Assembly (NCBI GenBank): GCA_016935485.1
Contig: JAFGQW010000343.1
Location: 1 to 38,163, forward strand
Origin: Planctomycetota bacterium
GTDB taxonomy: Bacteria > Planctomycetota > JAFGQW01
Direction of reading: 5' to 3'
DNA length: 38,163 bases
Shown: positions 1 to 31,779 of the stretch, one piece after another
Numbering within the stretch: the stretch's first letter is position 1
How the letters are laid out: each line of letters begins with the position of its first letter
Notes under the pieces: generated by a model
Told to the model about the DNA's origin: nothing
What the model saw: the letters and a program-made list of their open reading frames with translations, nothing else
Databases searched by the model: none
Position numbers and translations under genes: made by a program

Positions 1-24
1 TCGAACAGGGTGGGCAGTGCAGCA

Positions 25-2646: not shown

Positions 2647-4383
2647 ATGGCGCGTTTCGGCATGGGCATCGACCTGGGCTCCGACAGCGTCAAGATCGTG
2701 CAGGGTCGGTTCCGGGGCGAGACCTTCCACGTGGTCAAGGCGCGCCGGCTCCGCCTGCCGCCGGGCGAGGATCACGCCGCGTTCCTCAAGCGCACGCTCG
2801 CGGGCGAAGGCTTCCGCGGGGCAGCGCTCCTCGGTCTGACCGGCAAGGACATCATCATTCGTTACACGCAGGTGCCGCCGGTCACCCCGCAGCGCTTGAA
2901 GACGCTGATGGACTTCGAGGTGAGCGAGATCATCGCGCAGAGCGGCGGCGACGTCGTCGCGGACTACGCGCTGCTGCCGCTCGACGAGGGCTCCGAGGAG
3001 GAAGAGCTGGTGCTCCTCGGGCTGGTGAAGGACGCCTTCCTGTCGGCGCGCATGGAGGCGCTCAAGGCGCTCGGGATCCGCGTGCAGGGCGCGTGTCCGA
3101 ACGCGCTCGGGCTGTTCAACTGCTTTCTCAAGAACGGCGACTTCCGCAGCGAGGAGCTCACCCTGCTGCTGAACCTCGGCGCCGAGAACTGCGACATCGC
3201 GCTACAGAAGAACGCGCAGCTGATCTTCGCGCGCAACCAGTCCCTCGGCGGGCGGGCCTTCACGCGGGCGATCATGGAGGGACTCGGCGTGGACGAGGTC
3301 CGCGCCGAGCGCTTGAAGCAGCTCAAGGCGGACCTCACGGCCCTGCTGCCGGGCCGGCGCCCGGAGCAGGCCGAGGAGCGGCTTGCGCGCACGCTGGTGG
3401 GACCGGCGGGCCGGCTCTTCTCGATGGTGCAGTCGACCCTGACCTTCGCGAAGAACCAGTCCAAGATGTACAACCTCAAGCTGGGCCGGGTGCTGCTCTC
3501 GGGCGGCGGTTCCCGGCTGCGCGGGCTGGACGCCTACCTGTCCCAGAACCTGGGCGTGCCGGTGGAGCGCTTCGATCCCCTGCCCCGGGTGGATCTGTCG
3601 GCGCTCGCGCCGGAGTCGGCGCGCGAGGTCGCCGGCCACGGCGCGGAGCTGGCGGTTGCACTGGGTCTGGCCGAGATGGCGGTCGATCCGCGCTTCTTCC
3701 GCATCACGCTGCTGCCGGAGAAGGTCCGCAAGCGACTGGAGTTTCGCCGCAGCACGGCCTTTCTGATCGCGGCCGGGGTGGCGATCGTCTGCTTTCTCGG
3801 GCTGAGCTTCTTCAAGGCGCGCACCGAGAACGCCCACGCCGCGGCCTGGCAGCGCAAGGTCTCCGAGGAGCGCCACCAACGCGACAAGCACTTGCGCGAC
3901 TACCGGGAGGTCGAGCGCGCCAACCGGGAACTGGCCGAGAAGGTCGACCGGCTGGCGCGGCGCCGCAACTTCGGGGCGGCGCTCGTCAAGGCGTGGCGCG
4001 CGGTCGAGAAGCACCTGCCGGCGGAGTTCTGGATCCGGGAGCTGAAGCTGGAGTCGGTGCCCTTCCGCGCGATCGGCGAGGAGGGGACCCGGGCCTCCCG
4101 GTCGCCGGCCGTCCCGGTCGGGCGCAGTGCGCGGGACGCCGCGCCGCCCGGACCGGAGATCCCGACGCTCGTCGTGGTCGGCGCCGGCCGCCAGACCGGG
4201 CGGCAGCTGGTTCCGGCGCTCAACGACTACGTGGCGGCGCTCCGCGAGGAGGAGGACATCCGGCTGGTGCAGCGCACTGACAAGCTGGGCGCCGGTCAGC
4301 TGGAGTTCACGCTCTATTTGCACATGGTGGCGCCTCCGGCCGCGCCCGAGCCCGTGGGCGACAAGGACGGGCAACAACCGTAG
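2647..4383 (+). CDS. PilM-PilN fusion / GspL-like assembly protein
   Basis: The protein has 578 residues. The N-terminal ~340 residues form an actin/FtsA-like ATP-binding fold of the PilM/GspL type, with an early GIDLGSDSVKIV phosphate loop and a later LLSGGGSRLRGL motif. A transmembrane helix lies at about 369-390. It is followed by a basic coiled coil (about 395-445) and a periplasmic ferredoxin-like segment typical of PilN or the C-terminal half of GspL. The protein would anchor the pseudopilus assembly platform and contact the secretion ATPase, which is not in the window. ATG 2647 is preceded by GGGAG at good spacing; the open frame runs further upstream without any similarity. The gene lies 84 bases after the FHA gene and just before the GspM/PilO-like gene. 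GspL and a PilM-PilN fusion cannot be told apart from sequence reading alone. Confidence 0.85.
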   Translation: MARFGMGIDLGSDSVKIVQGRFRGETFHVVKARRLRLPPGEDHAAFLKRTLAGEGFRGAALLGLTGKDIIIRYTQVPPVTPQRLKTLMDFEVSEIIAQSGGDVVADYALLPLDEGSEEEELVLLGLVKDAFLSARMEALKALGIRVQGACPNALGLFNCFLKNGDFRSEELTLLLNLGAENCDIALQKNAQLIFARNQSLGGRAFTRAIMEGLGVDEVRAERLKQLKADLTALLPGRRPEQAEERLARTLVGPAGRLFSMVQSTLTFAKNQSKMYNLKLGRVLLSGGGSRLRGLDAYLSQNLGVPVERFDPLPRVDLSALAPESAREVAGHGAELAVALGLAEMAVDPRFFRITLLPEKVRKRLEFRRSTAFLIAAGVAIVCFLGLSFFKARTENAHAAAWQRKVSEERHQRDKHLRDYREVERANRELAEKVDRLARRRNFGAALVKAWRAVEKHLPAEFWIRELKLESVPFRAIGEEGTRASRSPAVPVGRSARDAAPPGPEIPTLVVVGAGRQTGRQLVPALNDYVAALREEEDIRLVQRTDKLGAGQLEFTLYLHMVAPPAAPEPVGDKDGQQP

Positions 4384-4445
4384 GGGCGTGCGCTGCCCCC
4401 GGTGCGATGGGGGCGCGCGGGCCCCGGGCTGGCAGGGAACGCGAG

Positions 4446-5201
4446 ATGGATTTCGAGGAACTCTGGGCCGAACACAAACCGTTCATCCTCCTGGTGGGCA
4501 TCGCGCTGATCGTCCTGCTGGTCTTCCAGGGGGTGAAGACGGCAATCTACACGGACGATACGGGGCGCGCGCTGGCCTCGGCGTCCCGGTCGCTGGCGAG
4601 CCTCCGGAGCGAGCCGGTCGCAAAGCGCAGCGAGGTCGCCGAAGAGCGGGAGCGGGAGGCCGAGCTGGGGGAGCGCCTCGAGCGCCTGCGCGGCGAGCTG
4701 ACCCTGAACGTGCCGGACGATTTCCGCCTGCCCGAGGTCAACGCGAAGTCCGCCTTCACCCGGGTCGTCCAGGAGACGCGCGACAAGGTGGCCGAGGTCG
4801 CCGGGCTGAAGAACCTGCACGTTCCCTACGAGCTCGGCGTCCCGAGCATCACGCCCAACACCCGCGAGGAGATGGACCGCTACCTTCTGGGCCTGGCGGT
4901 GGTCGAGCGCGTGGTGACGTACGCGGTGGACGAGGGGGTGAGGCGCGTGGAGTCGATCGAGATCAGACCGGCGCGGGGCACCGGCTTTCTCCGGGAAACG
5001 CGGGTGACGTTCCGCGTCCTGACCGAGGGGCGGGTGCTCGGCGCGCTGCTCGACCGGATTCTCGACCCCGCGAACCCCCTGGTGCTCACCCAGTTCCAGG
5101 TGACGCACCCGCCCCGCGGGGAGGGCGTCGTCGCCACGCTGGGGATTTCGATCGTGGAGGTCGACCCGGACCGGCCGGTCGGCGAGGAGGGAGTGGGCTA
5201 G
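4446..5201 (+). CDS. GspM/PilO-like assembly protein
   Basis: The protein has 251 residues. It has a short cytoplasmic tail, one transmembrane helix at about 12-30, a charged coiled coil at about 40-95 and a periplasmic alpha/beta domain. This is the layout of PilO and GspM, the partners of PilN and GspL in the inner-membrane platform. Primary sequence similarity in this family is low, so the call rests on topology, size and position right after the PilM/GspL-like gene. ATG 4446 has AGGGA seven bases upstream and puts the helix at the usual distance from the N-terminus; the upstream ATG at 4407 adds only an Arg/Gly-rich stretch. Its stop codon shares one base with the GTG start of the next gene, suggesting translational coupling. 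Confidence 0.75.
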   Translation: MDFEELWAEHKPFILLVGIALIVLLVFQGVKTAIYTDDTGRALASASRSLASLRSEPVAKRSEVAEEREREAELGERLERLRGELTLNVPDDFRLPEVNAKSAFTRVVQETRDKVAEVAGLKNLHVPYELGVPSITPNTREEMDRYLLGLAVVERVVTYAVDEGVRRVESIEIRPARGTGFLRETRVTFRVLTEGRVLGALLDRILDPANPLVLTQFQVTHPPRGEGVVATLGISIVEVDPDRPVGEEGVG

Positions 5202-7897
5202 TGGGTGGTCTGATCACGAAGGAGAAGATCGTCTTCGTCCTCGCACTGGTGCTGCTGGTGTGGGGGCTTCGCGGCGCGCTCTCCCCAGCGAATCCGGCGG
5301 GTTCGGTGCCCCCGGGCCGGCCGCTGGAGAAGACGCCGCCGCCGTTCCTGTCACCGGATCTCCGGCTGGCCGAGACCGACGAGCTCTACCGGGAGCGGGG
5401 CCGGGACCTCTTCGCTGAGCCCATCGCCTTGAAGCCGCTCAGCCCGCTCGAGCTGGCGCCGCCGCCGCTCGTGCAAGCGCCGCTGACGGCCCCGCCGCCC
5501 GTGCCGGGTCCCCCGCCGCGTCACTGGGCGGGGTTGCGCCACCACATGCCTCCGGCCACGGCCGCCGGCGGCGGGGCTCAAGCCGGCCGGGCGGGGGCGC
5601 CCGCCGCGGGGAGCGAGCCGGGGACGGCGACGCCCGGAGCGGACGAGGCGAAGAAGGCGGAGGCGAAGGTCGATCCCGCCAAGACGTACGACTCCGTGAT
5701 CCGCAGGGCGAGCACCACGCGGCTCTACGGGCGGATCCGCAATCCGGATCCCCTGGCGCTCGTCGAGGCGGAGAAGGATGACGAGGAGAACCAATTCGTC
5801 TTGAAGCGCGGCGCGCGCCTCGAGTTCGACTACTTTGACCCGGCCACGGGGCTCCGGCGCGGCGCGGAGACATTCGGAGCGGGCGATCTGGAGGTGTTCT
5901 CCCTGGCAGCCACTCCCACGAACCTCTACGCGATCAAGCGGCGCCGCCTCCCGCCGGGCAGCGTGAACAGCCGGATCGCGCTGGCCCGCTGGCTGACGAG
6001 CATCGGCCGGGTGGACTGGGCCGCGGGGGAGTATCGCGAGGCCATGAAGCTCGACCCGCGCCGCAAGGACCTCTACCTCGAGCTCGGGCAGACGCTCGAG
6101 CGCGAGTACCTCTGGGAGGATGCGCTGCAGTGTTACCGCAGCGCCCGCGAGCAGGGCGTGGACGATCCGGCGCTGCTCTACCGCGAGGGGCTGTTGCTCA
6201 AGCGGTTCGGCCTGATTCCGGCGGCGTTCGGGCGCTTCCGTCAGGCGCTCGAGGTCGATCGCGGGGACACCCGGTCGCGCATCGCGCTCGGGGAGTGCCT
6301 GGTGCGGCTCGGCCGGGTCGACGAGGCCGTGGTCGAGCTGAAGCAGGCCTACGGGGCGAGTGCGCCGGCGGGCACGCCCATCGCGAGCACGCTGTGGTTC
6401 GACGCCGCGGTCGCGCTCGGCCGGGCCTACCTGGCGGCCGGCGACTTCAAGGAGGCGGCCCGCTACTTCCGCGCGGTCGTGGACGCCGACCGCGCCCGCG
6501 AGCACAAGGAGGCGTTCCACGGGCTCGCCGCCACCCTGTACGCGATGGGCGGCAGCGAGGCGCTGGGGGAGGCGCTGCCGCTGTGGGCGGCGGGAGACCG
6601 GTCGCCGCTGACGCGCGTCGCCCTGATCCATCGGGGCTACGCCCTGGTGCGGCTGGGTCGATTCGGCGAGGCGCGCGAGGCGCTCGAGCAGGCGCTCCGG
6701 GAGGATCCGCTCCACGCCGATCTGGCCCTCCTCGGCCTCGCGTTCGTCGCGGAGTGCGAGGGCAAGCACGACGAGGCGCTCGAGACCTACGAGGAGGCGC
6801 TGGTGCGCAATCCGACGCTCCTCTACGCCCACCTGGCCATCGGGCGGATTCAGCGGCAGCAAGGCGACCCCGAGGCGGCCCGGGCCGCGCTGGCCCGCCT
6901 GCTGGACCAGGCGCCGGACGCGGTGGATGCGCTGCTCGAGATGGCGCTGGCTTGCCTGGCGGTCAACCAGACCCCCGAGGCGCTCCGGTACCTGGAGCGG
7001 GCGCGCCAGCTCGAGCCGTCCTCGCTCGCGCTCACCTCGGCGTACGGAGCGTGCCTGCTGCGCGCGCAGCGCGAGGAGGCCGCGATGGCGGTGTTCCAGT
7101 CCGTTCTGGCCCGGCGCGACGACGACCCGCTGGCGCTGGCCAGCGCCGCCGTCGTGCACTACCGCCGGGGGGACGTGCCCAAGGCGATCGGCAATTTCCA
7201 GTCGACGATGGAGGCGGGGCGCAACGACCCCCGGTTCCGGAACATCGTGGAATACGCGCGCCGCACCGCGGCGGCCATCGAGGACAACGCCCGCAAGCGC
7301 CTCTGGGAGGACGACTTCAACCGGACCGAGATCCGCAACGACTGGAGCACGGAACACTCCCACGGGGTCGTCATTCGCAGCGCGAAGGGTGCGGTCGAGT
7401 TCCACGGAACCCAGCAGGTCGGCGACGCGGAGACGGCGCTCCTGCGCACCGTGTCTCTGGGCCAGCTCGTCTCCTTCGACGTGGCGCTCACGGTCCCCGA
7501 GGGCACCCGCGCGGCGATCGGCGTGGAGATCGTGGTGCGCCGCAGCAGTCAGGATCGCACCGCCGTGCGCGGCGCCATCCAGTTCGTGCGCGACCCGCGG
7601 GGGCAGCTCGCCTACCGCATCCACGAGGGCGAGGGCGAGTTTGCGCCGTGGCAGCTCGTCGGCCGGGCCTGGCCGGCCGGCGCGGGGGTGCGCCTGGGCT
7701 TCCAGCGGTCCGGCGAGCGGGAACAGGCGTGGAGCCTGACGCTCGATGGCCGCGTCATCCAGCGCGACATCGAGGTGAAACCGCTGCGCGGCTGGAATCG
7801 GGACGCGCAGATCGGCGTGTTCGGAGCGGCCAAGATCGGCACCGAGTGGGCGTGCACGGTCGACGACGTGCGCATGATTCTCCGGGTGGATTCGTGA
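5201..7897 (+). CDS. Membrane-anchored TPR protein with C-terminal beta-sandwich
   Basis: The protein has 898 residues. An N-terminal transmembrane helix (about 9-26) is followed by a Pro/Ala-rich linker (about 28-165). A small folded region comes next (about 170-250), then a long array of TPR repeats (about 260-690) with the usual A/G-Y-A spacing and repeated LxLDPxxxDLYLELG-like units. The last ~200 residues start with a DDFNR motif and are beta-rich, with a pattern like concanavalin/LamG-type sandwiches. The TPR array should be extracytoplasmic and could act as a scaffold for pseudopilins or secretion partners; this role is inferred from position only. The GTG start overlaps the previous stop (TAGTG) and has AGGAGG ten bases upstream. 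The stop overlaps the next ATG (TGATG). Confidence 0.8.
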   Translation: MGGLITKEKIVFVLALVLLVWGLRGALSPANPAGSVPPGRPLEKTPPPFLSPDLRLAETDELYRERGRDLFAEPIALKPLSPLELAPPPLVQAPLTAPPPVPGPPPRHWAGLRHHMPPATAAGGGAQAGRAGAPAAGSEPGTATPGADEAKKAEAKVDPAKTYDSVIRRASTTRLYGRIRNPDPLALVEAEKDDEENQFVLKRGARLEFDYFDPATGLRRGAETFGAGDLEVFSLAATPTNLYAIKRRRLPPGSVNSRIALARWLTSIGRVDWAAGEYREAMKLDPRRKDLYLELGQTLEREYLWEDALQCYRSAREQGVDDPALLYREGLLLKRFGLIPAAFGRFRQALEVDRGDTRSRIALGECLVRLGRVDEAVVELKQAYGASAPAGTPIASTLWFDAAVALGRAYLAAGDFKEAARYFRAVVDADRAREHKEAFHGLAATLYAMGGSEALGEALPLWAAGDRSPLTRVALIHRGYALVRLGRFGEAREALEQALREDPLHADLALLGLAFVAECEGKHDEALETYEEALVRNPTLLYAHLAIGRIQRQQGDPEAARAALARLLDQAPDAVDALLEMALACLAVNQTPEALRYLERARQLEPSSLALTSAYGACLLRAQREEAAMAVFQSVLARRDDDPLALASAAVVHYRRGDVPKAIGNFQSTMEAGRNDPRFRNIVEYARRTAAAIEDNARKRLWEDDFNRTEIRNDWSTEHSHGVVIRSAKGAVEFHGTQQVGDAETALLRTVSLGQLVSFDVALTVPEGTRAAIGVEIVVRRSSQDRTAVRGAIQFVRDPRGQLAYRIHEGEGEFAPWQLVGRAWPAGAGVRLGFQRSGEREQAWSLTLDGRVIQRDIEVKPLRGWNRDAQIGVFGAAKIGTEWACTVDDVRMILRVDS

Positions 7898-8580
7898 TGC
7901 AGAGCTCGACACGGAACCGAACGCCGCCCGCGGCCCGGGCCGCGGGCGGCCGGCCGCGCGGCGCGCGCGGTTTCACCCTGATCGAGATCCTCGTGGTGCT
8001 GACCATCCTGGCGGCGCTGATCGCGGTGGTCACACCGGTGCTGTTCAAGGCCCAGGAGGAGGGGCAGCGCGCCGTCACCGCGGCGGCCATCCAGACGATC
8101 AAGACGGCGCTCAAGATGCGCGCCGCCGACCCCCGGATCGGCGACGTGCCGCCGACCTCGCTCGCGGCGGCGGGGTTCGACCCGCCGAACGATATCAACG
8201 AGGGGATCGAGGTGCTCGTGGCGCTGCTCGGCGCCGAGGACGCGCCGTCCAATCCGTTCGAGGACGACTCGAGGCTCGTCAACCTGGACGGGGATCGCGA
8301 CCCGACGCGGATGACATACCAGCGCTCCCGGGAGTTCTTCGAGTATGCCGACTCGTGGGGCAACCCGCTCCTCTACTTTCGGCTGCGCGACTTCTCGGAC
8401 AACCCCGACGCCAAGGTGCGCTACCAGATCCTGAGCGGCGCGATCCTCGAGGTGGGGCCGATCCGGAGCAAGAAGACCGGGTCGTTTGCCGGCGTGAGCG
8501 ACGGCTTCCAGCTGATCAGCCTGGGGCCCGACGAGGAGTTGGGCACCGACGACGACGTGGTGAGCTGGAGCGGGTCGTAG
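7897..8580 (+). CDS. gspG: Major pseudopilin, GspG-type
   Basis: The protein has 227 residues. A basic leader ends in Gly followed by the class III prepilin motif FTLIEILVVL, with Glu at mature position 5, and a hydrophobic helix. This is cut and N-methylated by the prepilin peptidase. Two C-terminal marks point to GspG rather than a minor pilin. One is DSWGNPLLYF at about 152-161, matching the DxWGNPYxY family motif. The other is SLGPDEELGTDDD near 208-220, matching the acidic calcium-binding loop of T2SS major pseudopilins. It would polymerise into the periplasmic pseudopilus. It is longer than the usual ~140-150 residues because of insertions between helix and WGNP. It is coupled to the preceding TPR gene. 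Confidence 0.88.
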   Translation: MQSSTRNRTPPAARAAGGRPRGARGFTLIEILVVLTILAALIAVVTPVLFKAQEEGQRAVTAAAIQTIKTALKMRAADPRIGDVPPTSLAAAGFDPPNDINEGIEVLVALLGAEDAPSNPFEDDSRLVNLDGDRDPTRMTYQRSREFFEYADSWGNPLLYFRLRDFSDNPDAKVRYQILSGAILEVGPIRSKKTGSFAGVSDGFQLISLGPDEELGTDDDVVSWSGS

Positions 8581-8677: not shown

Positions 8678-9715
8678 ATGGGCACGACCGGGCGAGAGCA
8701 GACGCGGCGGGCGGTGGCCGCGGGCACCACGCTGGTGGAGCTCCTGGTCGTGCTGTTCATCGTGTCGCTGCTGCTGGGCATCGGCGTCGGCGTGTTCGGG
8801 AAGTTCTCCGTGCTGAGCGCGGCGGACAACGCCGGGGCGGGGATCCGGTCCATGGTGCGGGTGATCCGCGATCATGCGCGAAACCACGGCACCGTGGGCA
8901 CCGTGGTCCTCGACGCGGAGAACAACCGGGTGCTCGGGCTGCTGGAGCGGGTGGTCGGGCAGTGGCATTTCGAGAGCGCCGGCGGCGCCACGACCGGCGC
9001 CTTCGACCACGATCCTCGGCTGCTCGGCGGTGCGGAGCTGGTTCGGGACGGCTGCATCGGCGGCGCGCTCCGGCTGGACGGCGGTCCGGGCGCTGGCGCC
9101 GAGCTGGGCCGGGCCGTCACGTTCGAGTCCGAGTGGGGGATCGCGCTCTCGGCCGATGTGTGGCTGGAGGAGGCCCAGGGCGGCGGGGGCACGCTGCTGG
9201 CCAAGGGCGATGCGTACGGGCTGCGTCTGGAAGGCACCCGCTCGCTCGTGGGCTGGGTCGGGGTGACGGAGGAGGGCGAGATCGCCCGCCGCCTGGACGT
9301 GGTGGAGGCGAGTTCCGGCGAGGAGAAGGTGCCCTGCGGCCGCTGGGCGCGGATCGGCCTCTACTACGACCGCGTGCAGCTGCGCCTGTTCATCGACGCC
9401 CGGCAGGTGGCCGAGGCCCAGGAGGGGCGTCCGCTGGGGCAGGCGCCCGACAAGCCGCTCGTCCTGGGGGGAGGGACCAGCGCCATCAAGGGCAAGGTCG
9501 ACGGCGTGCGGTTGAGCGTGCTCGGGCCCGCGGAGGGGGGGGAGCTACCCCCGGGGGTCAAGCTGGGCGGCGGCACCCGCGTGATCCGCTTCGATGCGCA
9601 GGGACGGCTGGATGCCCGCTACCACCGGGTGCCGGCGAAGATCGTGCTCGAGGGCGCCGACGGGGGGTTGCGGACCGTTGCGGTCGGACCTCTGGGAGAC
9701 GTATCGCTGGAATGA
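8678..9715 (+). CDS. Minor pseudopilin, GspH-type, with inserted LamG-like domain
   Basis: The protein has 345 residues. The prepilin signal is a variant: Gly then TTLVELLVVL, with Thr instead of Phe at position +1 but Glu kept at +5. The last ~55 residues (TRVIRFDAQGRLDA, then VAVGPLGDVSLE) match the C-terminal strand pattern of GspH/FimT proteins. Between them, residues about 90-285 read as a LamG/concanavalin-like sandwich. A WHFES opening leads to a GGALRLDGG strand, then a CGRWARIGLYYD strand and RLFIDARQVAE, and it closes with GKVDGVRLSVL. GspH proteins usually have about 170 residues, so this one is doubled by the insertion. The ATG has GGAAGGA upstream. The domain should be exposed on the pseudopilus tip or side. 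Confidence 0.8.
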   Translation: MGTTGREQTRRAVAAGTTLVELLVVLFIVSLLLGIGVGVFGKFSVLSAADNAGAGIRSMVRVIRDHARNHGTVGTVVLDAENNRVLGLLERVVGQWHFESAGGATTGAFDHDPRLLGGAELVRDGCIGGALRLDGGPGAGAELGRAVTFESEWGIALSADVWLEEAQGGGGTLLAKGDAYGLRLEGTRSLVGWVGVTEEGEIARRLDVVEASSGEEKVPCGRWARIGLYYDRVQLRLFIDARQVAEAQEGRPLGQAPDKPLVLGGGTSAIKGKVDGVRLSVLGPAEGGELPPGVKLGGGTRVIRFDAQGRLDARYHRVPAKIVLEGADGGLRTVAVGPLGDVSLE

Positions 9716-9855
9716 CTGCCGGCAGGAAATGGAAACCGGGCGCCCGGCGCAACCGGCGGGCATCCTTCTGGTTTGGAGACGCGGTGCGGCGCGCGGGCAT
9801 CGGGGCCGGGCGCCGTGGTGGTGTGCCGGGGTCGGAAAGGAGCCTTCGCGGATGA
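9712..9855 (+). CDS. Possible 47-codon linking ORF
   Basis: A 47-residue frame starts with ATG overlapping the gspH-like stop (ATGA) and ends with TGA overlapping the ATG of the large gspK-like gene (ATGA). The product is Arg/Gly-rich and matches nothing I recognise. It may only carry ribosomes across the gap (translational coupling), or the fit may be chance in a high-GC background. No Shine-Dalgarno of its own is clear. The downstream gene has its own AAGGAG inside this frame. Confidence 0.22.
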   Translation: MTAGRKWKPGARRNRRASFWFGDAVRRAGIGAGRRGGVPGSERSLRG

Positions 9856-12800
9856 TCGCTCGCTACCGTCCGGATCGGCCCGAGGGCATTGCACTCATCA
9901 TGGTGATCGTGGTGCTGATGGCGCTGCTGCTCATCGCCACCCCGTTCGCGGTGAGCATGCGCGACCAGCGGGTCACGGTCCACATGATCGACAGCGCCGA
10001 TCGCGCCCAGGAGGATCTGGTGAGCATCCGGGATGCCGTGGTAGGCCGTCTCGCCCGGACCACGCACTTCCGGACGGATCCGACGCCAGACGTGGACGGG
10101 CTCGCCGAGATCGAGGCGGCGGCCGCACTCGAGGCCGTGGGCGACCTCGACGGCGTGTGCAACCCGCGCGGCGCGATTTGGAGCACGTCCGTCGAGGACG
10201 AGCAGGCGAAGATCAACGTGAACGCGGCCTCGCCGTTTGCGCTCGCCAACCTGTTCGGGGCGCGCACGGTGCTGAGCGAGAAGATCTCGGACGCCGATAC
10301 CGAGATCCCGGTCGAGGACTCCTCGATCTTCGCTCGCGACGGCGGCTACGTGGTGGTGGGCGCGGAGCTCATCCGGTACGCCGGCGTCCAGCTCGGCCGG
10401 CTGGTCGGCTGCGAGCGCGGGGTCCACGCCGTCGAGGAGGAGCCCATCCGGCTCGGCGTGACCGAGTCGTACTACTTCAGTCCCGGCTCGATCGTGCGGC
10501 TGTCCGACGGGCTCAGGACCGACTACGCGATGATCAGCGCGGTGTCCCGCGGTTTCCGCACGATCCTCTCGGGGCGCGGCGGCAGCGTGCAGATCACCCG
10601 CGGCTTCACGCTGCCGGACAATCACGGCACCGGCACGCCAGTCCTCGACGCGCGCGTCTTCGCGGTGAACCTCTACCGGATCCTGCGCCATCCCGGCCAG
10701 TGCTACCGCTACCCGACGGTCACCGCGATCCGCCAGATCACCGACCTGGGGCTGCCCGGCTTCGATCCGGATGCGCTCGAGAAGGTGCTGCCGCTTCTGA
10801 CCGTCTACAGCCAGCACGAGGGGGCGGCCCGCTGGGGCAACCACCGCACCGTGCTCGACGACTTCACCTACCGCGAGCGCGAGTGGCTCAGCTACCACAC
10901 GCGGATCGAGTTCGAGGTGCGCTACCCGGTGAACATCAACACGGCGGACCGCCCGGTCCTGGTCGCGCTCCTGCTCGGGCTTAGCGGCGAGCGCCAGCAG
11001 GAGGAAGTGACCGCCGACATGGCCGGCAAGCTCGCCGACCGCATCCTGGCGGCCCGGGCCGAGGAGCCGCTGAGGGACGCCGAGGACTTCCTCGACCGCA
11101 TCCTCGAGCCGGCGCTCGAGGTGGAGGAGATCACGCGCGGGCTGCGGGGCGCGGTCTTCCAGAACTTCTTCGACAGCCCCATGCTGGTGTTCCTCAACGG
11201 CGGCACCCACCGCGCCATCTTCCATGCGCTCGATACCTTCACGATCCTGGCCAACGTGAGCCGCAACAACGCGGCCGGCGTGGAGCTGGCGCGCCGGCGC
11301 ATGAAGGAGGTCGTGAGCGTCGCCCCGCCGCAGCTCATCCGCTACGTGCTCGACTCGCAGTGGGATTTCGAGCGCCTGATCCCGCCCGGCCGCTACAGCC
11401 GGTTCGTCACCACGTTTCCCGTGAACGTGGAGACCCAGCAGTCCCCGCAGGACCCCCCTGTGTTCGATCCCCCGAACCGCTCGATGAAGCAGCTGTCGGG
11501 CTACGTCCGGAACCAGCGGCGGGAGGCGCGCGGCCTGGAGAAGCGGGACGTGTTCGCCTCGCGGGAGACCGAGGGATTCGAGGGCGAGGACGCCGGCAGC
11601 GTCCGCGGGCGCCCGGCGCGGAGCGCGGACGGCTTCGGCGGCATGGGCCGCAACGTCGAGCCGAACCGGATGTTCGTCGAGCACTTCGACAACAGCGAGG
11701 ACATCGAGGGCGAGAAGCTCACCAGCGGCACGCGGACGCTGCCGCTGTTCAGCCGCAGCGTGTCGGTGCAAGGGGGCGGGCGGGTCAGCGTTCGCGTGTC
11801 CACCGGCCAGCGGGGCGGCGGCATGAACCCGATGGTGATCGGGCTGTGGTATCGCCCGCTCTGGGACGAGATCGGCGAGGGGCGCCACTACATCTGGGGG
11901 ACGGGCGATGACCCGAACACCGACAAGGTGGAGCTCTTCTACGACGGGCGCGAGCGGGCATTGGTGCTCGAGATCGCCGATGCCGGGCTCAGCCGCCCGG
12001 CCGATCTCAGCCGGGCGTACTTTCCCATCCAGCGCGGCAGCCGCGCGTGGTACCACATCGCCTGCGTGATCGCCGGCACGCGGCCCGACCAGATGCAGAT
12101 CCTCGTCGACGGCGTGCCGTTTCGCGGCACGGAGAAGGTCAAGCAGCACTACCGCTTCCTCACCCGGCTCACGGGCGACATCAGCGCCGAGGAGACCCGG
12201 ATTCCGGTCGAGGACAGCGAGGGCTTCCCCGACCGCGGCGTCCTGCTGATCGGCGAGGAGAAGATCGAGTACCGGGGCCGCTCGAAGACCGGTTTCAGCG
12301 CGATTGCGGACAACCGGGAGAACCCGCGGGTCAAGCGGGGCCGCGGGTCCCGCGGATCCACGGCGGTCAGCCACCGGGAGGGGGCCGCGGTGCTGCTGTA
12401 CGGTTATGCCGACGCGATCGCCTCGGAGATCCCCGCCGTGCAGGGCCGGCTCGCCGGTGCGGGCGGGACCGCCGGGCTGGGCCGCTGGCGGCCGGCGCTG
12501 CTCAACGGCAAGGACGCGATCGTCACTGTGCGCGGCGCGCCGCTCGGTCTCCTCGAGACGAGCACGTCGATCCCGCTCTTTGCGCCGAGCGGCACGCTCG
12601 AGGGCTTCCAGCAGAGCGGCTACGCGTTGCTGCTGTCGGCGCGGATCGCCCGGCTGGGACCCGAACCGACGCCCCAGAACCCGAACCCGGCGGGTACCGT
12701 CGATATCGGCGGCGTGGAGCTCGTCCACTACAGCACGCTCGCCGGAAACGAGCTCCAGGGGGTGACGCGCGGCGTGAGCACCCCGCATTTGCTGGAGACG

Positions 12801-15065
12801 TTCGGCGAGCAGAGCATCACGTGGCTGAACCCGACCGTTCCCAAGGCGTTCTTGAACGGCACCGAGCCGCACCTTCTGGTTCAGGCCGAGAGCGGGCAGG
12901 GCGTCATTCCCACCTGGGTCGTTCCCATCAGCCTGCAGGCGACGGATACGACCGGCTACCTCGATCCGCTGGTCACGCTGTACTCCGAGCGCGTGCAGAT
13001 CAACACCGAGGGCGGGCGGCCCGAGTGGGTGCGCTACGACGAGCTGCTCACCTTCGGCGGCGCCCACTACTTCGGGCGGACCGACTGGCGCCACCTTCGG
13101 CGGCTGTTCCGCGTGATGACGCGCCGTGCCCTGGTCCCGCCGGCCAGCGGGAAGTGGGCTTTCCTGGGCCTGCCCGGCGGTGGCGAGGGCCTGGCGGTGG
13201 CGGCGCCGGCTGCTGTCGGCGCCTTCCCGGACCCGGAGCCGCCGCTGCCGCAGCAGACCGAGCAGGAGGAGACGTTCCTCGGCCCCGTCGCCGCCACCGA
13301 GGTGGCGGACTCCTTGCCGGGCTGGGTCGAGTTTCGCGGCTCCGACGACACCCAGGACCGCGACCATGCCCACAACATCGAGATCCTGCAGGTCTTTCGC
13401 ACCGATCTCCCGGCGGCGGGTCCGGAGGATCGGGTGACCCTGGTGGATGGGTCGGGGGCGACGAAGGAGGATCATTTCGTCCGCTGGGGGGCGGCCTATG
13501 CCGACGCTTCCCTCGGGCGCCTGGACCGCACGGCCCACTTCGCGTCATTCAGCCGCGGGGTGGCCCGCCGCTGGCTCTCCGACACCGAGCGGATTCGCAC
13601 CCAGGGCGGTGCGGGGCAGCGCCAGCGCGCCACGGTGGACCGGACCCCGAGCGCCATCCAGTGGGACACGCGCCGGGTGGCGCGCCTGCTGAAGGCGCCG
13701 AGCGGCGAGCTGCCGAGCCGGACCACGGGCTCGCTCATCGTGGGCGGCACGTTCGGTGGGCGGCGGGCCTCGTGCATCCTCGACGAGGTGGAGACCTTCC
13801 CGCACACCGAGTCCACGATGCGCCGCATCGTGGCCCCGCCGTCGCTCAAGCTCCGCTACCAGAACGCCATCAATCCGGGGGCGACCCAGGAGGAACAGCA
13901 GAAGCAGCGCGAGGCGCAGCAGCGGGCGCGGCGCTACATCACCGCGGACGAGGTGGACATCCCGCTCGCGTACGCCGACGTGTGGACCGATTTCGACGGC
14001 ATCACGCGCGAGCGCGAGGTGTGGCGCGGCAGCTTCGCCGCGTTCCAGCGCCAGAACCAGCAGGGACGCAGCGGCGGATCGGTACGGAGCCCCTTTCCCT
14101 ACACGCGCCGGTCCGCGGACGATCGGGACTGCGGCCTGGTGCGCATCGGCAACGAGTTCATCGTCTACCGCGGGCTCGAGCAGCAGTCCGAGCGCATGGA
14201 GATCGTGCTGAAGAACTGCCTGCGCGGGGCCTTCGGCACCGAGGCGTCGGCGCACGAGCAGGGCGAGGCGGCGCTGTTCCTGGGGTACGTGGAGATGACG
14301 CTGCTGCGCGAGGGCATCTCGGCGGAGGCTTCGAGTCTGCCGATCGTGGACAGCCTCGGGCTGGCGCCGCAGGGCTATGTCGCGGCCTTCGACAACCTCC
14401 AGACGGGGAGCGTCCGGGAGGTGATCGGCTACACCGAGACCCGGCGCGGCAGCCGCACCGAGGGCACGGGGGCCGAGCTCGTCATGCCGCAGCGCGTGAG
14501 CCAGGAGCAGCTTCAGACCCTGATCGAGCTCCGGGAGCAGCAGCAGGAGCCGAGCCCGGAGCAGGGCGGCTCCGGCATCTTTCGCGGGCGGTTCGGCACC
14601 GTGCCGGCGCAGCACGCGTCGAACACCGTGCTGCTGCGGCTGCCATTCCGCTACTGGGACCGCGCCGCCCGCAACGCCGACAACCCGGAACTGGGCTACT
14701 TCCAGTTCCCGCTGAACCGGACGGGGGCCTACGTCAAGACGCTCACCTGGGGCGAGCACTTCCGCCAGAAGAACCTCGATCTCCGCGTGCTGGCGCGTGT
14801 GGACCAGCGGGCGCCGTGGGATGCCGAGCCCCGCGGCCGAGAGAACGGGCTCTTCGAGTTCACCAACCCGCGCGGCCAGAACGATCCCAACCGGATCGAC
14901 ATGCAGGGTAACCTCTTGGAGGTGCGGGTCTTCTTCGAGTACCGCGCGGGGGCATTCGATGCGCTCTTCGACGCCGACGGCTGGAAGGAGACCCCGTGGC
15001 TTACCCATCTCCGGGTGGACTACGTGCAGGCGAGCCAGGTGCTGTACCACGAGGCGAAGCGATAG
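9852..15065 (+). CDS. Giant GspK-type minor pseudopilin with LamG-like domain and beta-module repeats
   Basis: The protein has 1737 residues, against about 320 for ordinary GspK. The N-terminus is a prepilin-like helix after Gly (IALIMVIVVLMALLL) without Glu at +5, as expected of GspK. GspK core features are present: KINVNAASPFALANL at about 120 and a helix-hairpin-helix segment starting VNINTADRPVLVALL at about 360-425. The rest is extra. A LamG-like sandwich (about 640-770) contains AWYHIACV and the strand LVDGVPF. At least five copies of a short beta module have the pattern IPVEDS, then G.V.IG.E.I.Y.G, then L..C.RG..GT. They lie near 144-198, 776-841, 900-980, 1425-1483 and 1487-1603. ATG 9852 has AAGGAG nine bases upstream. 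The tip position of GspK suggests a surface-display or adhesive/sensing role; that is inference. Confidence 0.82.
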   Translation: MIARYRPDRPEGIALIMVIVVLMALLLIATPFAVSMRDQRVTVHMIDSADRAQEDLVSIRDAVVGRLARTTHFRTDPTPDVDGLAEIEAAAALEAVGDLDGVCNPRGAIWSTSVEDEQAKINVNAASPFALANLFGARTVLSEKISDADTEIPVEDSSIFARDGGYVVVGAELIRYAGVQLGRLVGCERGVHAVEEEPIRLGVTESYYFSPGSIVRLSDGLRTDYAMISAVSRGFRTILSGRGGSVQITRGFTLPDNHGTGTPVLDARVFAVNLYRILRHPGQCYRYPTVTAIRQITDLGLPGFDPDALEKVLPLLTVYSQHEGAARWGNHRTVLDDFTYREREWLSYHTRIEFEVRYPVNINTADRPVLVALLLGLSGERQQEEVTADMAGKLADRILAARAEEPLRDAEDFLDRILEPALEVEEITRGLRGAVFQNFFDSPMLVFLNGGTHRAIFHALDTFTILANVSRNNAAGVELARRRMKEVVSVAPPQLIRYVLDSQWDFERLIPPGRYSRFVTTFPVNVETQQSPQDPPVFDPPNRSMKQLSGYVRNQRREARGLEKRDVFASRETEGFEGEDAGSVRGRPARSADGFGGMGRNVEPNRMFVEHFDNSEDIEGEKLTSGTRTLPLFSRSVSVQGGGRVSVRVSTGQRGGGMNPMVIGLWYRPLWDEIGEGRHYIWGTGDDPNTDKVELFYDGRERALVLEIADAGLSRPADLSRAYFPIQRGSRAWYHIACVIAGTRPDQMQILVDGVPFRGTEKVKQHYRFLTRLTGDISAEETRIPVEDSEGFPDRGVLLIGEEKIEYRGRSKTGFSAIADNRENPRVKRGRGSRGSTAVSHREGAAVLLYGYADAIASEIPAVQGRLAGAGGTAGLGRWRPALLNGKDAIVTVRGAPLGLLETSTSIPLFAPSGTLEGFQQSGYALLLSARIARLGPEPTPQNPNPAGTVDIGGVELVHYSTLAGNELQGVTRGVSTPHLLETFGEQSITWLNPTVPKAFLNGTEPHLLVQAESGQGVIPTWVVPISLQATDTTGYLDPLVTLYSERVQINTEGGRPEWVRYDELLTFGGAHYFGRTDWRHLRRLFRVMTRRALVPPASGKWAFLGLPGGGEGLAVAAPAAVGAFPDPEPPLPQQTEQEETFLGPVAATEVADSLPGWVEFRGSDDTQDRDHAHNIEILQVFRTDLPAAGPEDRVTLVDGSGATKEDHFVRWGAAYADASLGRLDRTAHFASFSRGVARRWLSDTERIRTQGGAGQRQRATVDRTPSAIQWDTRRVARLLKAPSGELPSRTTGSLIVGGTFGGRRASCILDEVETFPHTESTMRRIVAPPSLKLRYQNAINPGATQEEQQKQREAQQRARRYITADEVDIPLAYADVWTDFDGITREREVWRGSFAAFQRQNQQGRSGGSVRSPFPYTRRSADDRDCGLVRIGNEFIVYRGLEQQSERMEIVLKNCLRGAFGTEASAHEQGEAALFLGYVEMTLLREGISAEASSLPIVDSLGLAPQGYVAAFDNLQTGSVREVIGYTETRRGSRTEGTGAELVMPQRVSQEQLQTLIELREQQQEPSPEQGGSGIFRGRFGTVPAQHASNTVLLRLPFRYWDRAARNADNPELGYFQFPLNRTGAYVKTLTWGEHFRQKNLDLRVLARVDQRAPWDAEPRGRENGLFEFTNPRGQNDPNRIDMQGNLLEVRVFFEYRAGAFDALFDADGWKETPWLTHLRVDYVQASQVLYHEAKR

Positions 15066-15069
15066 TACA

Positions 15070-16323
15070 ATGCAACGGGCCGTGGGTACTTGGCGCGCGC
15101 GTCCCGGGTCTGGCGGCCCGGATGGCCGGCGGCCGTCGCCGGCGCGCGCCGGCTTCACGCTGATCGAGCTTCTGATCTCGTGCGCGCTCTTCATCGGGAT
15201 CGTCTTCGTGCTCTACACGTTCATCAGCGGCGGCGTCAAGATGTGGCGCACCGGGGAGCGGCGCCAGGATCTCTACCAGCGCGCCCAGGCGGCGTTCGAG
15301 GTCCTGGCCGCGGACCTGTGGTGCACGTTCTGCCCGCAGGTCTTCGAGGAGGCCCCGCCCGTGGCCCAGTTCCTCGCGGAACGTCCGTCCCGGCCGGTGC
15401 GGGATGCCTTCGGCATCGAATCCCGCGAGCCCGAGGAGCGGCGTCCGCACGTGCTCGGTTCGCGCCTGCGGCTGGTCCGCACGATTTCCGGCGAGTTCTC
15501 CGATCCGGTGACTCGCTTGAGCGGCCTGGTGGCCGGCGCCACGGAGCACTACTTGCCGGGAGTGCTGCCGGCGACGGACGACGAAGAGGGCGAGGGCAGG
15601 GCGCCGGGCGAGAGTGCGCCGCCTGCCTACAAGGCGCCCGGCGGGCTCATGGAGCTGATGTATCTGGCGACCGTGCTGCCCGGTTCCGGGCAGGCCGCCG
15701 GCATGGGTACGCTGCTCCGCGGCGAGCGCATGCCGGTCGGCGGTGAGGGATCCTTTTTCTCCGACGAGGTCGCCGACAGTCCCGCCGCGTGGACGACGGT
15801 GCTCCGCCCCGTGGTGGGCGGGGTGCTCCACCTTGGGCTGGAGTTCTGGGACCAGGATACCGAGTCCTGGGAAGGCGAGCCCGGCGAGGCCCGCTCCGGG
15901 GTCCAGGACGTGTGGGATTCCACGCGCGGTCGCCTCAAGGAGTTCCGCTTCTATCGCCGCGGCTCGGCGGCGACCGACATCGACGACATCTACCCGCGGC
16001 GGGTGCGGATCACGCTGATCCTGTCCCGGCCCGCGGACGCCGCGATGGCCGCGCGGCTCGCGTGGGGCCTGGGGCGCAACGAGAAGCGCCTCGACCTCGA
16101 CCGGCCCGGCGGGCTCGAGCTCGAGGACGAGGCGGTGGTGCTGGTCGGGGGCCGGGAGCTGATGGCGATCGCCCGCGCCGGCGCCGTCCGCGCCAGGATC
16201 GTCACCCGGGGCGCGTACGATACCCCGATCGCCGACCACGAGCGTGGCGCGCCGGTGGTCTGGGGAGAAGTTTTCACGCGGGTGGTCAACATTCCCTGCT
16301 ACCGCGAGTACCATAACCCGTAG
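15070..16323 (+). CDS. Minor pseudopilin, GspJ-type
   Basis: The protein has 417 residues. A basic, Pro/Gly-rich leader ends in Gly before FTLIELLISCALFIGIVF, a complete prepilin motif with Glu at +5. The C-terminal half contains KEFRFYRRGS and RRVRITLIL, fitting the GspJ pattern in which late strands carry the R-V-x-I/V-T-L signature. GspJ joins GspI and GspK in the tip complex, and this gene lies between those two. It is about twice the usual GspJ length, with an insertion of Pro/Glu-rich sequence near residues 160-195 and an additional C-terminal beta region. The start is four bases after the gspK-like stop, with no strong ribosome binding site, so coupling is likely. Confidence 0.8.
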   Translation: MQRAVGTWRARPGSGGPDGRRPSPARAGFTLIELLISCALFIGIVFVLYTFISGGVKMWRTGERRQDLYQRAQAAFEVLAADLWCTFCPQVFEEAPPVAQFLAERPSRPVRDAFGIESREPEERRPHVLGSRLRLVRTISGEFSDPVTRLSGLVAGATEHYLPGVLPATDDEEGEGRAPGESAPPAYKAPGGLMELMYLATVLPGSGQAAGMGTLLRGERMPVGGEGSFFSDEVADSPAAWTTVLRPVVGGVLHLGLEFWDQDTESWEGEPGEARSGVQDVWDSTRGRLKEFRFYRRGSAATDIDDIYPRRVRITLILSRPADAAMAARLAWGLGRNEKRLDLDRPGGLELEDEAVVLVGGRELMAIARAGAVRARIVTRGAYDTPIADHERGAPVVWGEVFTRVVNIPCYREYHNP

Positions 16324-16325
16324 TC

Positions 16326-16787
16326 ATGACCATGGACCGTAACCCCAGTCACCGGTCGGGCGGCTTCACCCTGATCGAGGTGATGATCGCGGCCGTGGTG
16401 CTCGTGGCGGGAATGCTGTCGATCATGGGGCTGTTCGGCGTCGCGCTGGCCACGCACCGGAGCAACATCGACACGGCGCGCCTGGCGGCGATCCGTGCCG
16501 ACGTGCTGCCGGAGGCGCTCCGGGAGGCGGTCGAGATCGACCCGGAGACCGAGGTGCTCACCTGCCGGGATCTGGACCGGCGACCCGCGCCGGGCCATCC
16601 GGGGTTCTTCTACGAGCTCCGGATCGAGTCGAGCGACGCGGACAGCGGCGCCCACGTGGCGGCGCTGACGGTGAGCTGGTGGGGGGGCGGACGGCAGCAG
16701 ACGGACCGGAGCCGCCACGTGTTCCGGGCAGAGAAGAGCTTCGCGGACCTGATCCGGACCCGATTCAAGGAGGAAAGGCAACCATGA
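16326..16787 (+). CDS. Minor pseudopilin, GspI/PilV-type
   Basis: The protein has 153 residues. A short leader ends in Gly-Gly before FTLIEVMIAAVVLVAGML, a typical GspI/PilV prepilin start with Glu at +5 and an Ala/Val-rich helix. The length is normal for GspI, so unlike its neighbours it carries no added domain. GspI starts the I-J-K tip complex of the T2SS pseudopilus. The gene begins two bases after the gspJ-like stop and ends in an ATGA overlap with the next gene. A second ATG six bases downstream could also serve as the start. Confidence 0.82.
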   Translation: MTMDRNPSHRSGGFTLIEVMIAAVVLVAGMLSIMGLFGVALATHRSNIDTARLAAIRADVLPEALREAVEIDPETEVLTCRDLDRRPAPGHPGFFYELRIESSDADSGAHVAALTVSWWGGGRQQTDRSRHVFRAEKSFADLIRTRFKEERQP

Positions 16788-18394
16788 CAAGAATCCTCGC
16801 ACTCGCGGCCGCGGTGCTGGGCGTTGCGCTGGCGGCCCGGGTGCCGGCCGAGGTGGTCACGCTCAAGGACGGGACCGTGTTGCAGGGCCAGATCCTGGAG
16901 GGCGACGAGAAGGGCCTGCGCCTGCAGCGCTTCGACACGGGCGGGGTGGTCTTCCTGCCCTGGAACTTCCTCCACGACCGCGACCGTGACCGGATCCGCC
17001 GGGACCGCGGGCTGGACATCGGCGAGCTGGACGCCTTCCAGATTCCCGGCGTGCGCATCGAGATGCTGGACCGCACGGTCTACGAGGGCGTGATGGGCGA
17101 GCAGGAGCCCGACAAGATCTGGCTTCACACCGCCCAGTCCAGGATCCCGATCCTCACGAGCCGGATCGTGCGGCAGGAGGCCATCACGGTGAACGCCGTC
17201 GAGGTCTATCCGCCGGACAAGCTCTACGACGACCGGATGGCCGAGGGGCGCCCGACCGATGTGGACAGCCACTTCGAGCTCGGCAAGTTCTGCATGCAGA
17301 TCGAGCTCTACGACAAGGCCATCGAGCATTTCGGCAAGGTGCAGGAGCTCGATCCGCAGTACAAGCCCGACTTCGTGCAGAAGCGCCTGACGGAATGCCA
17401 GGTCATGCTGGCCAACCGCGCCCAGGCGGAGCTCGTCAACCGCATCACCCGGTTGCTCTACGCCAACAAGTTCAAGGAAGCGCTCGACCAGATCGCCGCC
17501 CTCGAGCAGCTCGAGGATCTGGATCCGGTCTGGAAAACGAAGCTCGCGGACAAGAAGAAGGAGGCCGGGGAGAAGCGCGAGTCCTTCCTCATCCGCAGCA
17601 TCGCTGCCACGATGCCGCCCTTCATCCGCCATCTCGCCGAGGTGGCGGGAAAGGACCGCAACCTCTCGCTCCCGAACGCGCGGAACTACGCGCAGCGGGA
17701 CCTCTCGCGGGATCTGCGCGCCCGGCTGGTGAACCGCTTCGAGATCGAGGAGAAGGAAGTCCGGGACTTCATCGCGAAGATCAAGTCGTACCACCAGTTC
17801 AAGGTGAGCTACGGCGACTTCACCTGGTTCGCGCCGGGCGAGACCCCGCCGACCTTCCAGCGCCAGCAGAGCGGCCGCACGACCCAGAGCGACCGTGGGC
17901 GGATCACCCGGGCGAGCGACCGGAGCCGCCAGAGCCAGCAGCAGCGGGAGAAGCCGCTTCCCAAGGCCGACGAGCTCTGGGCGCAGTCGATCGCCAAGCA
18001 GCGCACCAGCTTCATCCACGCGCTCTGGGCGGAGCGTGCGCGCGAGGTCCACGTGGTCCGCATCGAGCGGCAGGCGTGCTCGGTGTGCGCGGGCCGCGGC
18101 ACGACCCGGATCACCGGCGAGGGGGGGATCGTCGAGATCCGCTGCACGCGCTGCCGGGGCATCGGCAGCGACCGGGTGGTCGTCTACCGCATTGGACCGG
18201 GCGACGGCCAGGGCAACGTCGCGTCGCCGGCGAGCGAGGCCGGTCAGGGGCTCACCCCGGCCGAGCGGCTCCGGCAGAAGCTGCTCGAGCGGCAGCGCGG
18301 GCGCACGGAACCGGGCGGTCAGCCGCCCGGCGGCCAGCCGCCTTCCGGGGGCGATCGGCCCGGCTTGCGGCGTCCCGGCGGCGATCGGCGCTGA
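16784..18394 (+). CDS. Exported protein with tandem SH3/LSM-like repeats, TPR region and CxxCxG zinc motif
   Basis: The protein has 536 residues. A signal peptide is likely at 1-22 (hydrophobic, ending LAARVPAEV). Two similar beta units follow (about 24-75 and 84-130), with patterns such as LKDGTVLQGQILEGDEKGL and a GVVFLPWNFL strand, reminiscent of small SH3/LSM-like barrels. A TPR-like helical region lies at about 155-330. A Gln/Arg/Ser-rich linker leads to a zinc-ribbon-like pair, C432-x2-C435-x-G-x-G and C454-x2-C457-x-G-x-G, like two of the four DnaJ cysteine repeats. A Pro/Gly-rich tail ends the protein. The ATG has AGGAGG upstream and overlaps the gspI-like stop (ATGA), so it belongs to the secretion operon. 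I do not recognise a named family. An exported metal or redox-sensitive scaffold is one possibility. Confidence 0.75.
   Translation: MTRILALAAAVLGVALAARVPAEVVTLKDGTVLQGQILEGDEKGLRLQRFDTGGVVFLPWNFLHDRDRDRIRRDRGLDIGELDAFQIPGVRIEMLDRTVYEGVMGEQEPDKIWLHTAQSRIPILTSRIVRQEAITVNAVEVYPPDKLYDDRMAEGRPTDVDSHFELGKFCMQIELYDKAIEHFGKVQELDPQYKPDFVQKRLTECQVMLANRAQAELVNRITRLLYANKFKEALDQIAALEQLEDLDPVWKTKLADKKKEAGEKRESFLIRSIAATMPPFIRHLAEVAGKDRNLSLPNARNYAQRDLSRDLRARLVNRFEIEEKEVRDFIAKIKSYHQFKVSYGDFTWFAPGETPPTFQRQQSGRTTQSDRGRITRASDRSRQSQQQREKPLPKADELWAQSIAKQRTSFIHALWAERAREVHVVRIERQACSVCAGRGTTRITGEGGIVEIRCTRCRGIGSDRVVVYRIGPGDGQGNVASPASEAGQGLTPAERLRQKLLERQRGRTEPGGQPPGGQPPSGGDRPGLRRPGGDRR

Positions 18395-30249: not shown

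Positions 30250-31779
<1,530 letters not shown>

What the first reader, a model, noticed from the sequence alone, without database searches (positions are those of the whole stretch)
9852..15065. Giant GspK pseudopilin built from a LamG-like domain and repeated beta modules
At 1737 residues it is over five times the normal GspK size. Seen directly: GspK core features, a LamG-like segment (about 640-770) and at least five modules with the shared pattern IPVEDS / G.V.IG.E.I.Y.G / L..C.RG..GT. I recall similar modules in phage tail and surface proteins. GspK sits at the pseudopilus tip, so the tip could present a large adhesive or ligand-reading assembly. Such an architecture is unusual for a T2SS.
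Basis: partly seen in the sequence, partly recalled or inferred. Interest (0 to 1): 0.78.

Follow-up and report, generated by a model that had tools for sequence, protein, structure and literature searches.

The report
Giant lectin-bearing secretion pilus tip
In about half of the Planctomycetota genera sampled, the tip proteins of a secretion-type pilus carry extra parts that look like sugar-binding domains and virus tail-baseplate pieces, and the tip cap is more than five times normal size, which suggests the tip grips a ligand; what it grips is not known.

Summary
Window 9852-15065 is one uninterrupted gene for a 1737-residue GspK-type minor pseudopilin; the NCBI GspK model is 307 positions long. 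It is not a fusion artefact: single-frame homologues of about 1400-1900 residues occur in 22 lineages in the same gene order, and the unique C-terminal domain is found in 127 of 294 Planctomycetota genomes (96 of 206 genera). The LamG domain is real but larger than reported: residues 600-772 plus 1280-1335, split by a ~500-residue insert that carries two of the modules. The repeated module is real: 109 copies in 22 proteins, none in shuffles. It resembles phage tail and baseplate proteins and, in 11 genomes, is almost confined to GspK and the adjacent GspJ. The adjacent GspH also carries a LamG domain, inserted in its globular fold. So three of the four tip subunits (H, J, K) have grafted domains. 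Best explanation: a ligand-binding tip complex of a type IV filament, with a lectin-like role inferred and not shown. Both structure predictions failed (pLDDT about 36). Kind: modular pilin, extended to a whole HIJK tip.

The parts
9852..15065 (+). Giant GspK-type minor pseudopilin, 1737 aa, single frame, RBS AAAGGAG 9837-9843
9852..9986 (+). Class III leader (cleavage expected after Gly12, G|IALIMVIVVL, no Glu5 as in GspK) and N-terminal helix
   Evidence: GspK model 11-125
10269..10427 (+). Module 1 (aa 140-192), lying between the two GspK segments
   Evidence: 41.9 bits; phrog_4406 at 133-191
10428..10676 (+). Module 2, degenerate (aa 193-275, 20 bits)
10929..11102 (+). T2SSK core segment (aa 360-417, PVNINTADRPVL...)
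11649..12167 (+). LamG / concanavalin-like domain, first part (aa 600-772)
   Evidence: family profile: Laminin_G_3 in 14 of 22 members; PDB 4qvs E 1.4e-4
12168..12416 (+). Module 3 (aa 773-855), inside the LamG insertion
   Evidence: 70 bits; phrog_708 and phrog_2885 baseplate wedge at 767-818
12564..12776 (+). Module 4, divergent (aa about 905-975, profile hit 929-975), inside the LamG insertion
   Evidence: 23.7 bits
13689..13856 (+). LamG last strands (aa 1280-1335, SLIVGGTFGG...ILDEVETF), closing the split domain
   Evidence: hhalign sliding-window control, score 58.6 to 80.0 only here
14094..14300 (+). Module 5 (aa 1415-1483)
   Evidence: 51.5 bits; phrog_1101 tail at 1429-1477
14310..14663 (+). 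Module 6 with an internal loop (aa 1487-1604)
   Evidence: 49.3 bits
14664..15062 (+). Conserved C-terminal domain of unknown fold (aa 1605-1737), diagnostic of the family
   Evidence: A6 profile in 127 of 294 genomes; no PDB match at E 10; no match to LamG or module
8678..9715 (+). GspH-type minor pseudopilin (345 aa) with a LamG domain inserted in its globular fold (Pfam aa 154-279 = nt 9137-9514; family profile nt 8930-9550)
15070..16323 (+). GspJ-type minor pseudopilin, ATG 15070
16048..16260 (+). One copy of the module near the GspJ C-terminus (weak here, E 3e-3; strong in homologues, to 2e-12)
16326..16787 (+). GspI/PilV-type minor pseudopilin, 153 aa, no grafted domain detected
7897..8580 (+). 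GspG major pseudopilin (TIGR01710 E 8e-13)
2647..4383 (+). PilM-PilN-like (GspL-like) assembly protein, Amuc_1101 family E 1e-35
4407..5201 (+). PilO/GspM-like membrane protein by position and topology (no family match)
5198..7897 (+). TPR-repeat protein of the operon
10..2562 (+). FHA-domain protein, first gene of the conserved block
16784..18394 (+). TPR protein following the pseudopilins, conserved in the block

Best explanation
This is the cap subunit of a ligand-binding tip complex of a type IV filament (T2SS-like pseudopilus) that is common in Planctomycetota. Shown by sequence: a GspK core; modules inserted between the two GspK segments; a LamG domain that is itself split by a module-bearing insert; two more modules; and a conserved C-terminal domain. 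The neighbouring GspH carries a second LamG and GspJ carries one copy of the same module. Inferred from other type IV filaments: H, I, J and K assemble as a tip with K on top, so the grafts cluster at the filament end. Inferred from LamG and modular-pilin precedent: the two LamG domains bind a carbohydrate or glycoprotein, while the phage-tail-type modules act as rigid spacers or secondary binding elements, and filament extension presses the loaded tip into or through the secretin. Whether the tip takes exported proteins out or captures outside polymers is not decided here.
For: GspK identity. LamG in GspK and GspH. Module in GspK and GspJ. In 11 genomes 52 of 56 module matches lie in the giant GspK or the adjacent GspJ, so the module is tied to the tip genes. 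Conserved order PilM/N - PilO - TPR - GspG - GspH - GspK - GspJ - GspI across the phylum. Full-length GspH-LamG found in 82 of 147 genomes, 81 of which also carry the giant GspK C-terminal domain. HIJK complex capped by K and glycan binding by the lectin pilin PilC: PMC9934059; quaternary tip complex: PMC6211770; modular pilins and PF13385 grafts: PMC8179133.
Against: No binding data. The fold of the modules and of the C-terminal domain is unverified because both models had pLDDT near 36. LamG domains also bind proteins or serve structurally. In phage baseplates the module may be purely structural. Secretin, ATPase and platform genes are not in the operon in most genomes, so the filament type and its outlet are inferred. 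A ~190 kDa cap may be too bulky for a secretin channel.
Confidence: 0.55

Rival explanations
1. Cargo receptor of a periplasmic pseudopilus: the tip stays in the periplasm and the LamG and module surfaces select folded exoproteins (for example glycosylated or LamG-partner enzymes) for export through a dedicated secretin. The genome's other, canonical T2SS handles general cargo.
For: T2SS-type names for G, H, J, K and a GspL-like PilM-PilN. The own genome has a separate cluster on contig C196 with a secretin, a GspE and a GspK in a 517-aa frame, consistent with specialisation of the giant system.
Against: No dedicated cargo gene was found in the operon; the downstream genes are TPR, PPIase and ScpB. 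A lectin on a cargo receptor is not a known T2SS feature.
Confidence: 0.25
2. Structural cap: the added domains are scaffold, as in phage baseplates, and serve to plug or pry open the secretin or to bridge the wide planctomycetal periplasm, without ligand binding.
For: Modules resemble baseplate wedge and virion structural proteins. The domains are nested inside one another, which suits a rigid body. Strong conservation of the C-terminal domain.
Against: Two independent LamG grafts, in GspH and GspK, are more than a spacer needs. LamG-type grafts on pilins are known to be lectins in the one tested case (PMC9934059).
Confidence: 0.15
3. Assembly or frameshift artefact fusing a GspK with neighbouring genes.
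For: None found; the genome is a fragmented assembly of 405 contigs.
Against: 22 homologues, most from different families, are single frames of about 1400-1900 aa with the same domain order, including G001 at 57% identity over 6-1737 on a 1.5 Mb contig.
Confidence: 0.01

Closest known systems
GspK (XcpX/PulK) of type II secretion systems, in the HIJK tip complex
   Same: Class III leader without Glu5, N-terminal GspK model match, T2SSK segment, same gene neighbourhood with G, H, J, I and a GspL-like protein.
   Different: 5.7 times longer; modules between the GspK segments; C-terminal half with split LamG, modules and a new domain.
Modular type IV pilins (Streptococcus sanguinis PilB and PilC; PMC8179133, PMC9934059)
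   Same: Functional domains, including a concanavalin-type lectin, grafted on a pilin and presented at the filament tip.
   Different: Here three tip subunits are modified together, grafts are inserted inside domains and not only appended, and at 1737 residues GspK is twice the largest case named in that survey (860 residues).
Phage tail/baseplate module (PHROG 4406, 2885, 708, 1101; Pfam PF23666 Rcc01698_C of gene transfer agents)
   Same: Significant profile matches at the module positions in most family members.
   Different: Occurs in pilus tip proteins, repeated and nested, and is nearly absent elsewhere in these genomes.
Verru_Chthon cassette protein A (TIGR02600) and the Akkermansia Amuc_1101 pilus operon
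   Same: TIGR02600 is also a large (1296-position) protein with a pilin-type start; PilM matches Amuc_1101 (E 1e-35).
   Different: The TIGR02600 match covers only the first ~60 residues and is far below its cut-off.

Membership tests
Type II secretion minor pseudopilin GspK | Class III prepilin leader and hydrophobic N-terminal helix | tested here: met
   G|IALIMVIVVLMALLLIATPF conserved in homologues
Type II secretion minor pseudopilin GspK | Match to GspK models | tested here: inconclusive
   Pfam T2SSK 24.3 bits vs cut-off 24.2; NCBIfam 30.5 bits vs equivalog cut-off 130, E 2.6e-7, 19 of 22 members
Type II secretion minor pseudopilin GspK | Encoded with other minor pseudopilins H, I, J and major G | tested here: met
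Type II secretion system | Secretin, GspE ATPase and GspF platform in the genome | tested here: met
   own genome has 6 secretin and several T2SSE matches; T2SSF in 12 of 12 relatives (not run on the own genome); linkage to this operon not shown
Type II secretion system | Exports folded proteins through the secretin | not testable with these tools
   needs experiment
LamG / concanavalin-like domain (PF13385) | Profile match and full sandwich including last DE strand | tested here: met
   14 of 22 GspK and 14 of 16 GspH members; split second half located; no match in the window GspK taken alone
LamG / concanavalin-like domain (PF13385) | Carbohydrate binding | not testable with these tools
   no assay
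Phage tail/baseplate module | Significant profile similarity at module positions | tested here: met
   (best 1.6e-20); PF23666 5 of 22
Modular pilin | Pilin module joined to a functional non-pilin domain | tested here: met
   by sequence in GspH and GspK; function of the grafted domain not tested
Verru_Chthon cassette protein A | Full-length model match over cut-off | tested here: not met
   only residues ~9-71, 14-19 bits vs 332 cut-off

The most novel reading that the evidence does not exclude
A distinct class of planctomycetotal type IV filament whose whole tip complex is a lectin-plus-baseplate assembly that captures outside polysaccharide or particles, so the tip works like a phage baseplate turned to feeding or attachment; this would give a molecular candidate for the polymer-binding pili-like fibres reported at planctomycete surface craters.
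Probability: 0.2. Interest if true: 0.82.

Novelty: new variant of a known kind. Interest (0 to 1): 0.6.

Why it matters
Tip complexes of type IV filaments are usually pictured as small, conserved caps. A phylum-wide family in which H, J and K all carry grafted domains, with GspK near 190 kDa, is a strong natural test of how tips confer function. Dextran binding to pili-like fibres at crater structures of Planctomycetes has no binding protein named in the paper that reports it (PMC5394234); these LamG-bearing tips are testable candidates. A caveat: several nearly complete genomes of the phylum lack the giant GspK (families f3, f25, f41, f44), names are hidden here, and the species studied there may be among them. 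The near restriction of a phage-baseplate module to pilus tip genes also bears on exchange of parts between phage tails and pili.

Tried and rejected
Two AlphaFold2 jobs (residues 1-545 and 560-1737). LamG at the C-terminus of the TPR protein (5198-7897), suspected by eye, is not supported by either LamG profile. PDB search with the module profile gave only a phage tip attachment protein J at E 0.61 and an unrelated hit at 0.26, and with the C-terminal domain nothing. A genome-contig scan with the single protein found just two relatives, so other phyla were not surveyed. Membership in the Verru_Chthon cassette was considered and rejected. Fusion artefact rejected. No paper was found that describes this architecture in Planctomycetes, but only open-licence papers are searched.

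Full report
OBSERVATION. The open frame 9852-15065 is real, uninterrupted and starts at an ATG 8 bases after AAAGGAG. The protein has a class III prepilin leader of the GspK type and matches the NCBI GspK model at residues 11-125 (E 2.6e-7) and Pfam T2SSK at 360-417 (E 4e-5). The GspK model is 307 positions long, so 1737 residues is 5.7 times that size.

NOT AN ARTEFACT. In 40 relatives, 29 genomes gave matches. I extracted 22 proteins, most from different families; 21 have a recognisable leader and one is cut by a contig end. The complete ones are about 1380 to 1920 residues after trimming, each in one frame. The nearest, on a 1.5 Mb contig, is 57% identical over residues 6-1737. The phylum is Planctomycetota, judged from the named record L014.

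DOMAINS. A profile built from module copies, iterated over the family, finds 109 stretches above 10 bits in 22 proteins, while 440 shuffled proteins gave at most 3.6 bits. In the window protein the stretches are 140-192, 193-275 (weak), 773-855, 929-975 (weak), 1415-1483 and 1487-1604. Pfam Laminin_G_3 is found in 14 of 22 members (best 2.6e-10), T2SSK in 8, and Rcc01698_C, a gene-transfer-agent tail domain, in 5. The LamG profile from GspK finds a solved S-layer-domain protein at E 1.4e-4. The last 133 residues are the best conserved part, and match nothing in the PDB at E 10 and neither LamG nor the module by profile comparison.

THE LAMG IS SPLIT. LamG domains end with a strand of the type G.iDEv, and this motif stands at about 1305-1315, not near 770. 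I joined columns 600-772 to each of 28 windows of 56 residues from 860 to 1725 and scored each against the GspH LamG profile. The score stayed near 59 except at 1280-1335, where it rose to 80.0 (E 8.5e-12); the overlapping window 1310-1365 gave 65.6. So residues 773 to about 1280, with modules 3 and 4, are an insertion inside one LamG domain. Module 1 lies between the two GspK segments in the same way.

THE NEIGHBOURS SHARE THE GRAFTS. GspH (8678-9715) carries a LamG domain between its strands (Pfam E 5.4e-6; 14 of 16 homologues, best 4.7e-18). GspJ (15070-16323) carries one copy of the module near its C-terminus: weak in the window (E 3e-3), but found in 17 other neighbourhoods with E down to about 2e-12. 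GspI and GspG carry none that I could detect. Of 56 module matches in 11 whole genomes, 52 are in the giant GspK or adjacent GspJ. The order PilM/N - PilO-like - TPR - GspG - GspH - GspK - GspJ - GspI - TPR - PPIase - ScpB recurs across the loci. GspH was not found in three loci (L018, L030, L031).

PHAGE RESEMBLANCE. PHROG families annotated as virion structural (4406, 19 of 22 members, best 1.6e-20), baseplate wedge (2885, 16 of 22) and tail protein (1101, 16 of 22) match; in the window protein, where the coordinates are shown, they match at module positions. Module 3 finds the baseplate wedge protein of Synechococcus phage syn9 (35.8% over 67 residues, E 8e-4), and modules of another family member find a marine virus at 47% (E 4e-5). 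Direction of transfer is unknown.

DISTRIBUTION. The C-terminal domain is present in 127 of 294 sampled genomes of the phylum (96 of 206 genera); nearly all hits are in frames of 1200 to 2400 residues, a few shorter. The GspK core profile matches 79 of 88 genomes, many weakly, and some genomes have up to 17 matches in large GspK-like frames. Families f3, f25, f41 and f44, nearly complete genomes, lack the giant. Full-length GspH-LamG occurs in 82 of 147 genomes, 81 of which are among those with the giant GspK (one search compared; counted by hand).

MACHINE. The genome holds several GspE-type ATPases and six secretins, none in the window. It also holds a separate cluster on contig C196 with a secretin, a GspE and a GspK in a 517-residue frame, so the giant is not the only GspK. 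In G001 a pair of secretins lies 17-28 kb upstream of the operon. PilM resembles the Akkermansia Amuc_1101 family (E 1e-35).

MECHANISM. From published work, H, I, J and K form a quasi-helical tip capped by K (PMC9934059; PMC6211770), and a lectin module grafted on a minor pilin binds glycans in S. sanguinis (PMC9934059). Modular pilins are common and PF13385 is among the usual grafts, but the survey names 860 residues as its most extreme multi-domain case (PMC8179133). By analogy, the grafts on H, J and K should cluster at the filament end and form one composite binding surface. That is inference. Ligand, exposure and direction of transport are unknown. The link to dextran-binding pili-like fibres (PMC5394234) is a suggestion only, since genomes lacking the giant GspK exist and the studied species could be among them.

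VERDICT. Real and conserved; a new variant of a known kind (modular pilins in an HIJK tip), unusual for its scale, nested insertions, coordinated grafts on three tip subunits and phage-baseplate modules.

Noticed in passing
window 8678-9715 and 15070-16323: LamG in GspH and a phage-tail-type module in GspJ; followed up and made part of the finding.
   Followed up: yes
G037 and G073: These genomes have 16 and 17 GspK-core matches, mostly in frames of 800-1350 residues, which suggests an expansion of large GspK-like proteins.
   Followed up: no
G030:C12:14581-14823: A module match inside an open frame of 8712 residues, one of the few module copies outside the pilus tip genes.
   Followed up: no
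G001:C2:283641 and 295079; similar pairs in G016, G017, G020, G030, G114: Two secretin genes about 10 kb apart recur in these genomes; in G001 the pair lies near the giant GspK operon.
   Followed up: partly
window 2647-4383: PilM-PilN-like protein matches the Akkermansia Amuc_1101 pilus family (E 1e-35), so the assembly platform may be shared across the PVC group.
   Followed up: partly
window 30250-32373 (-): ATP synthase alpha and delta genes on the minus strand; ordinary.
   Followed up: no
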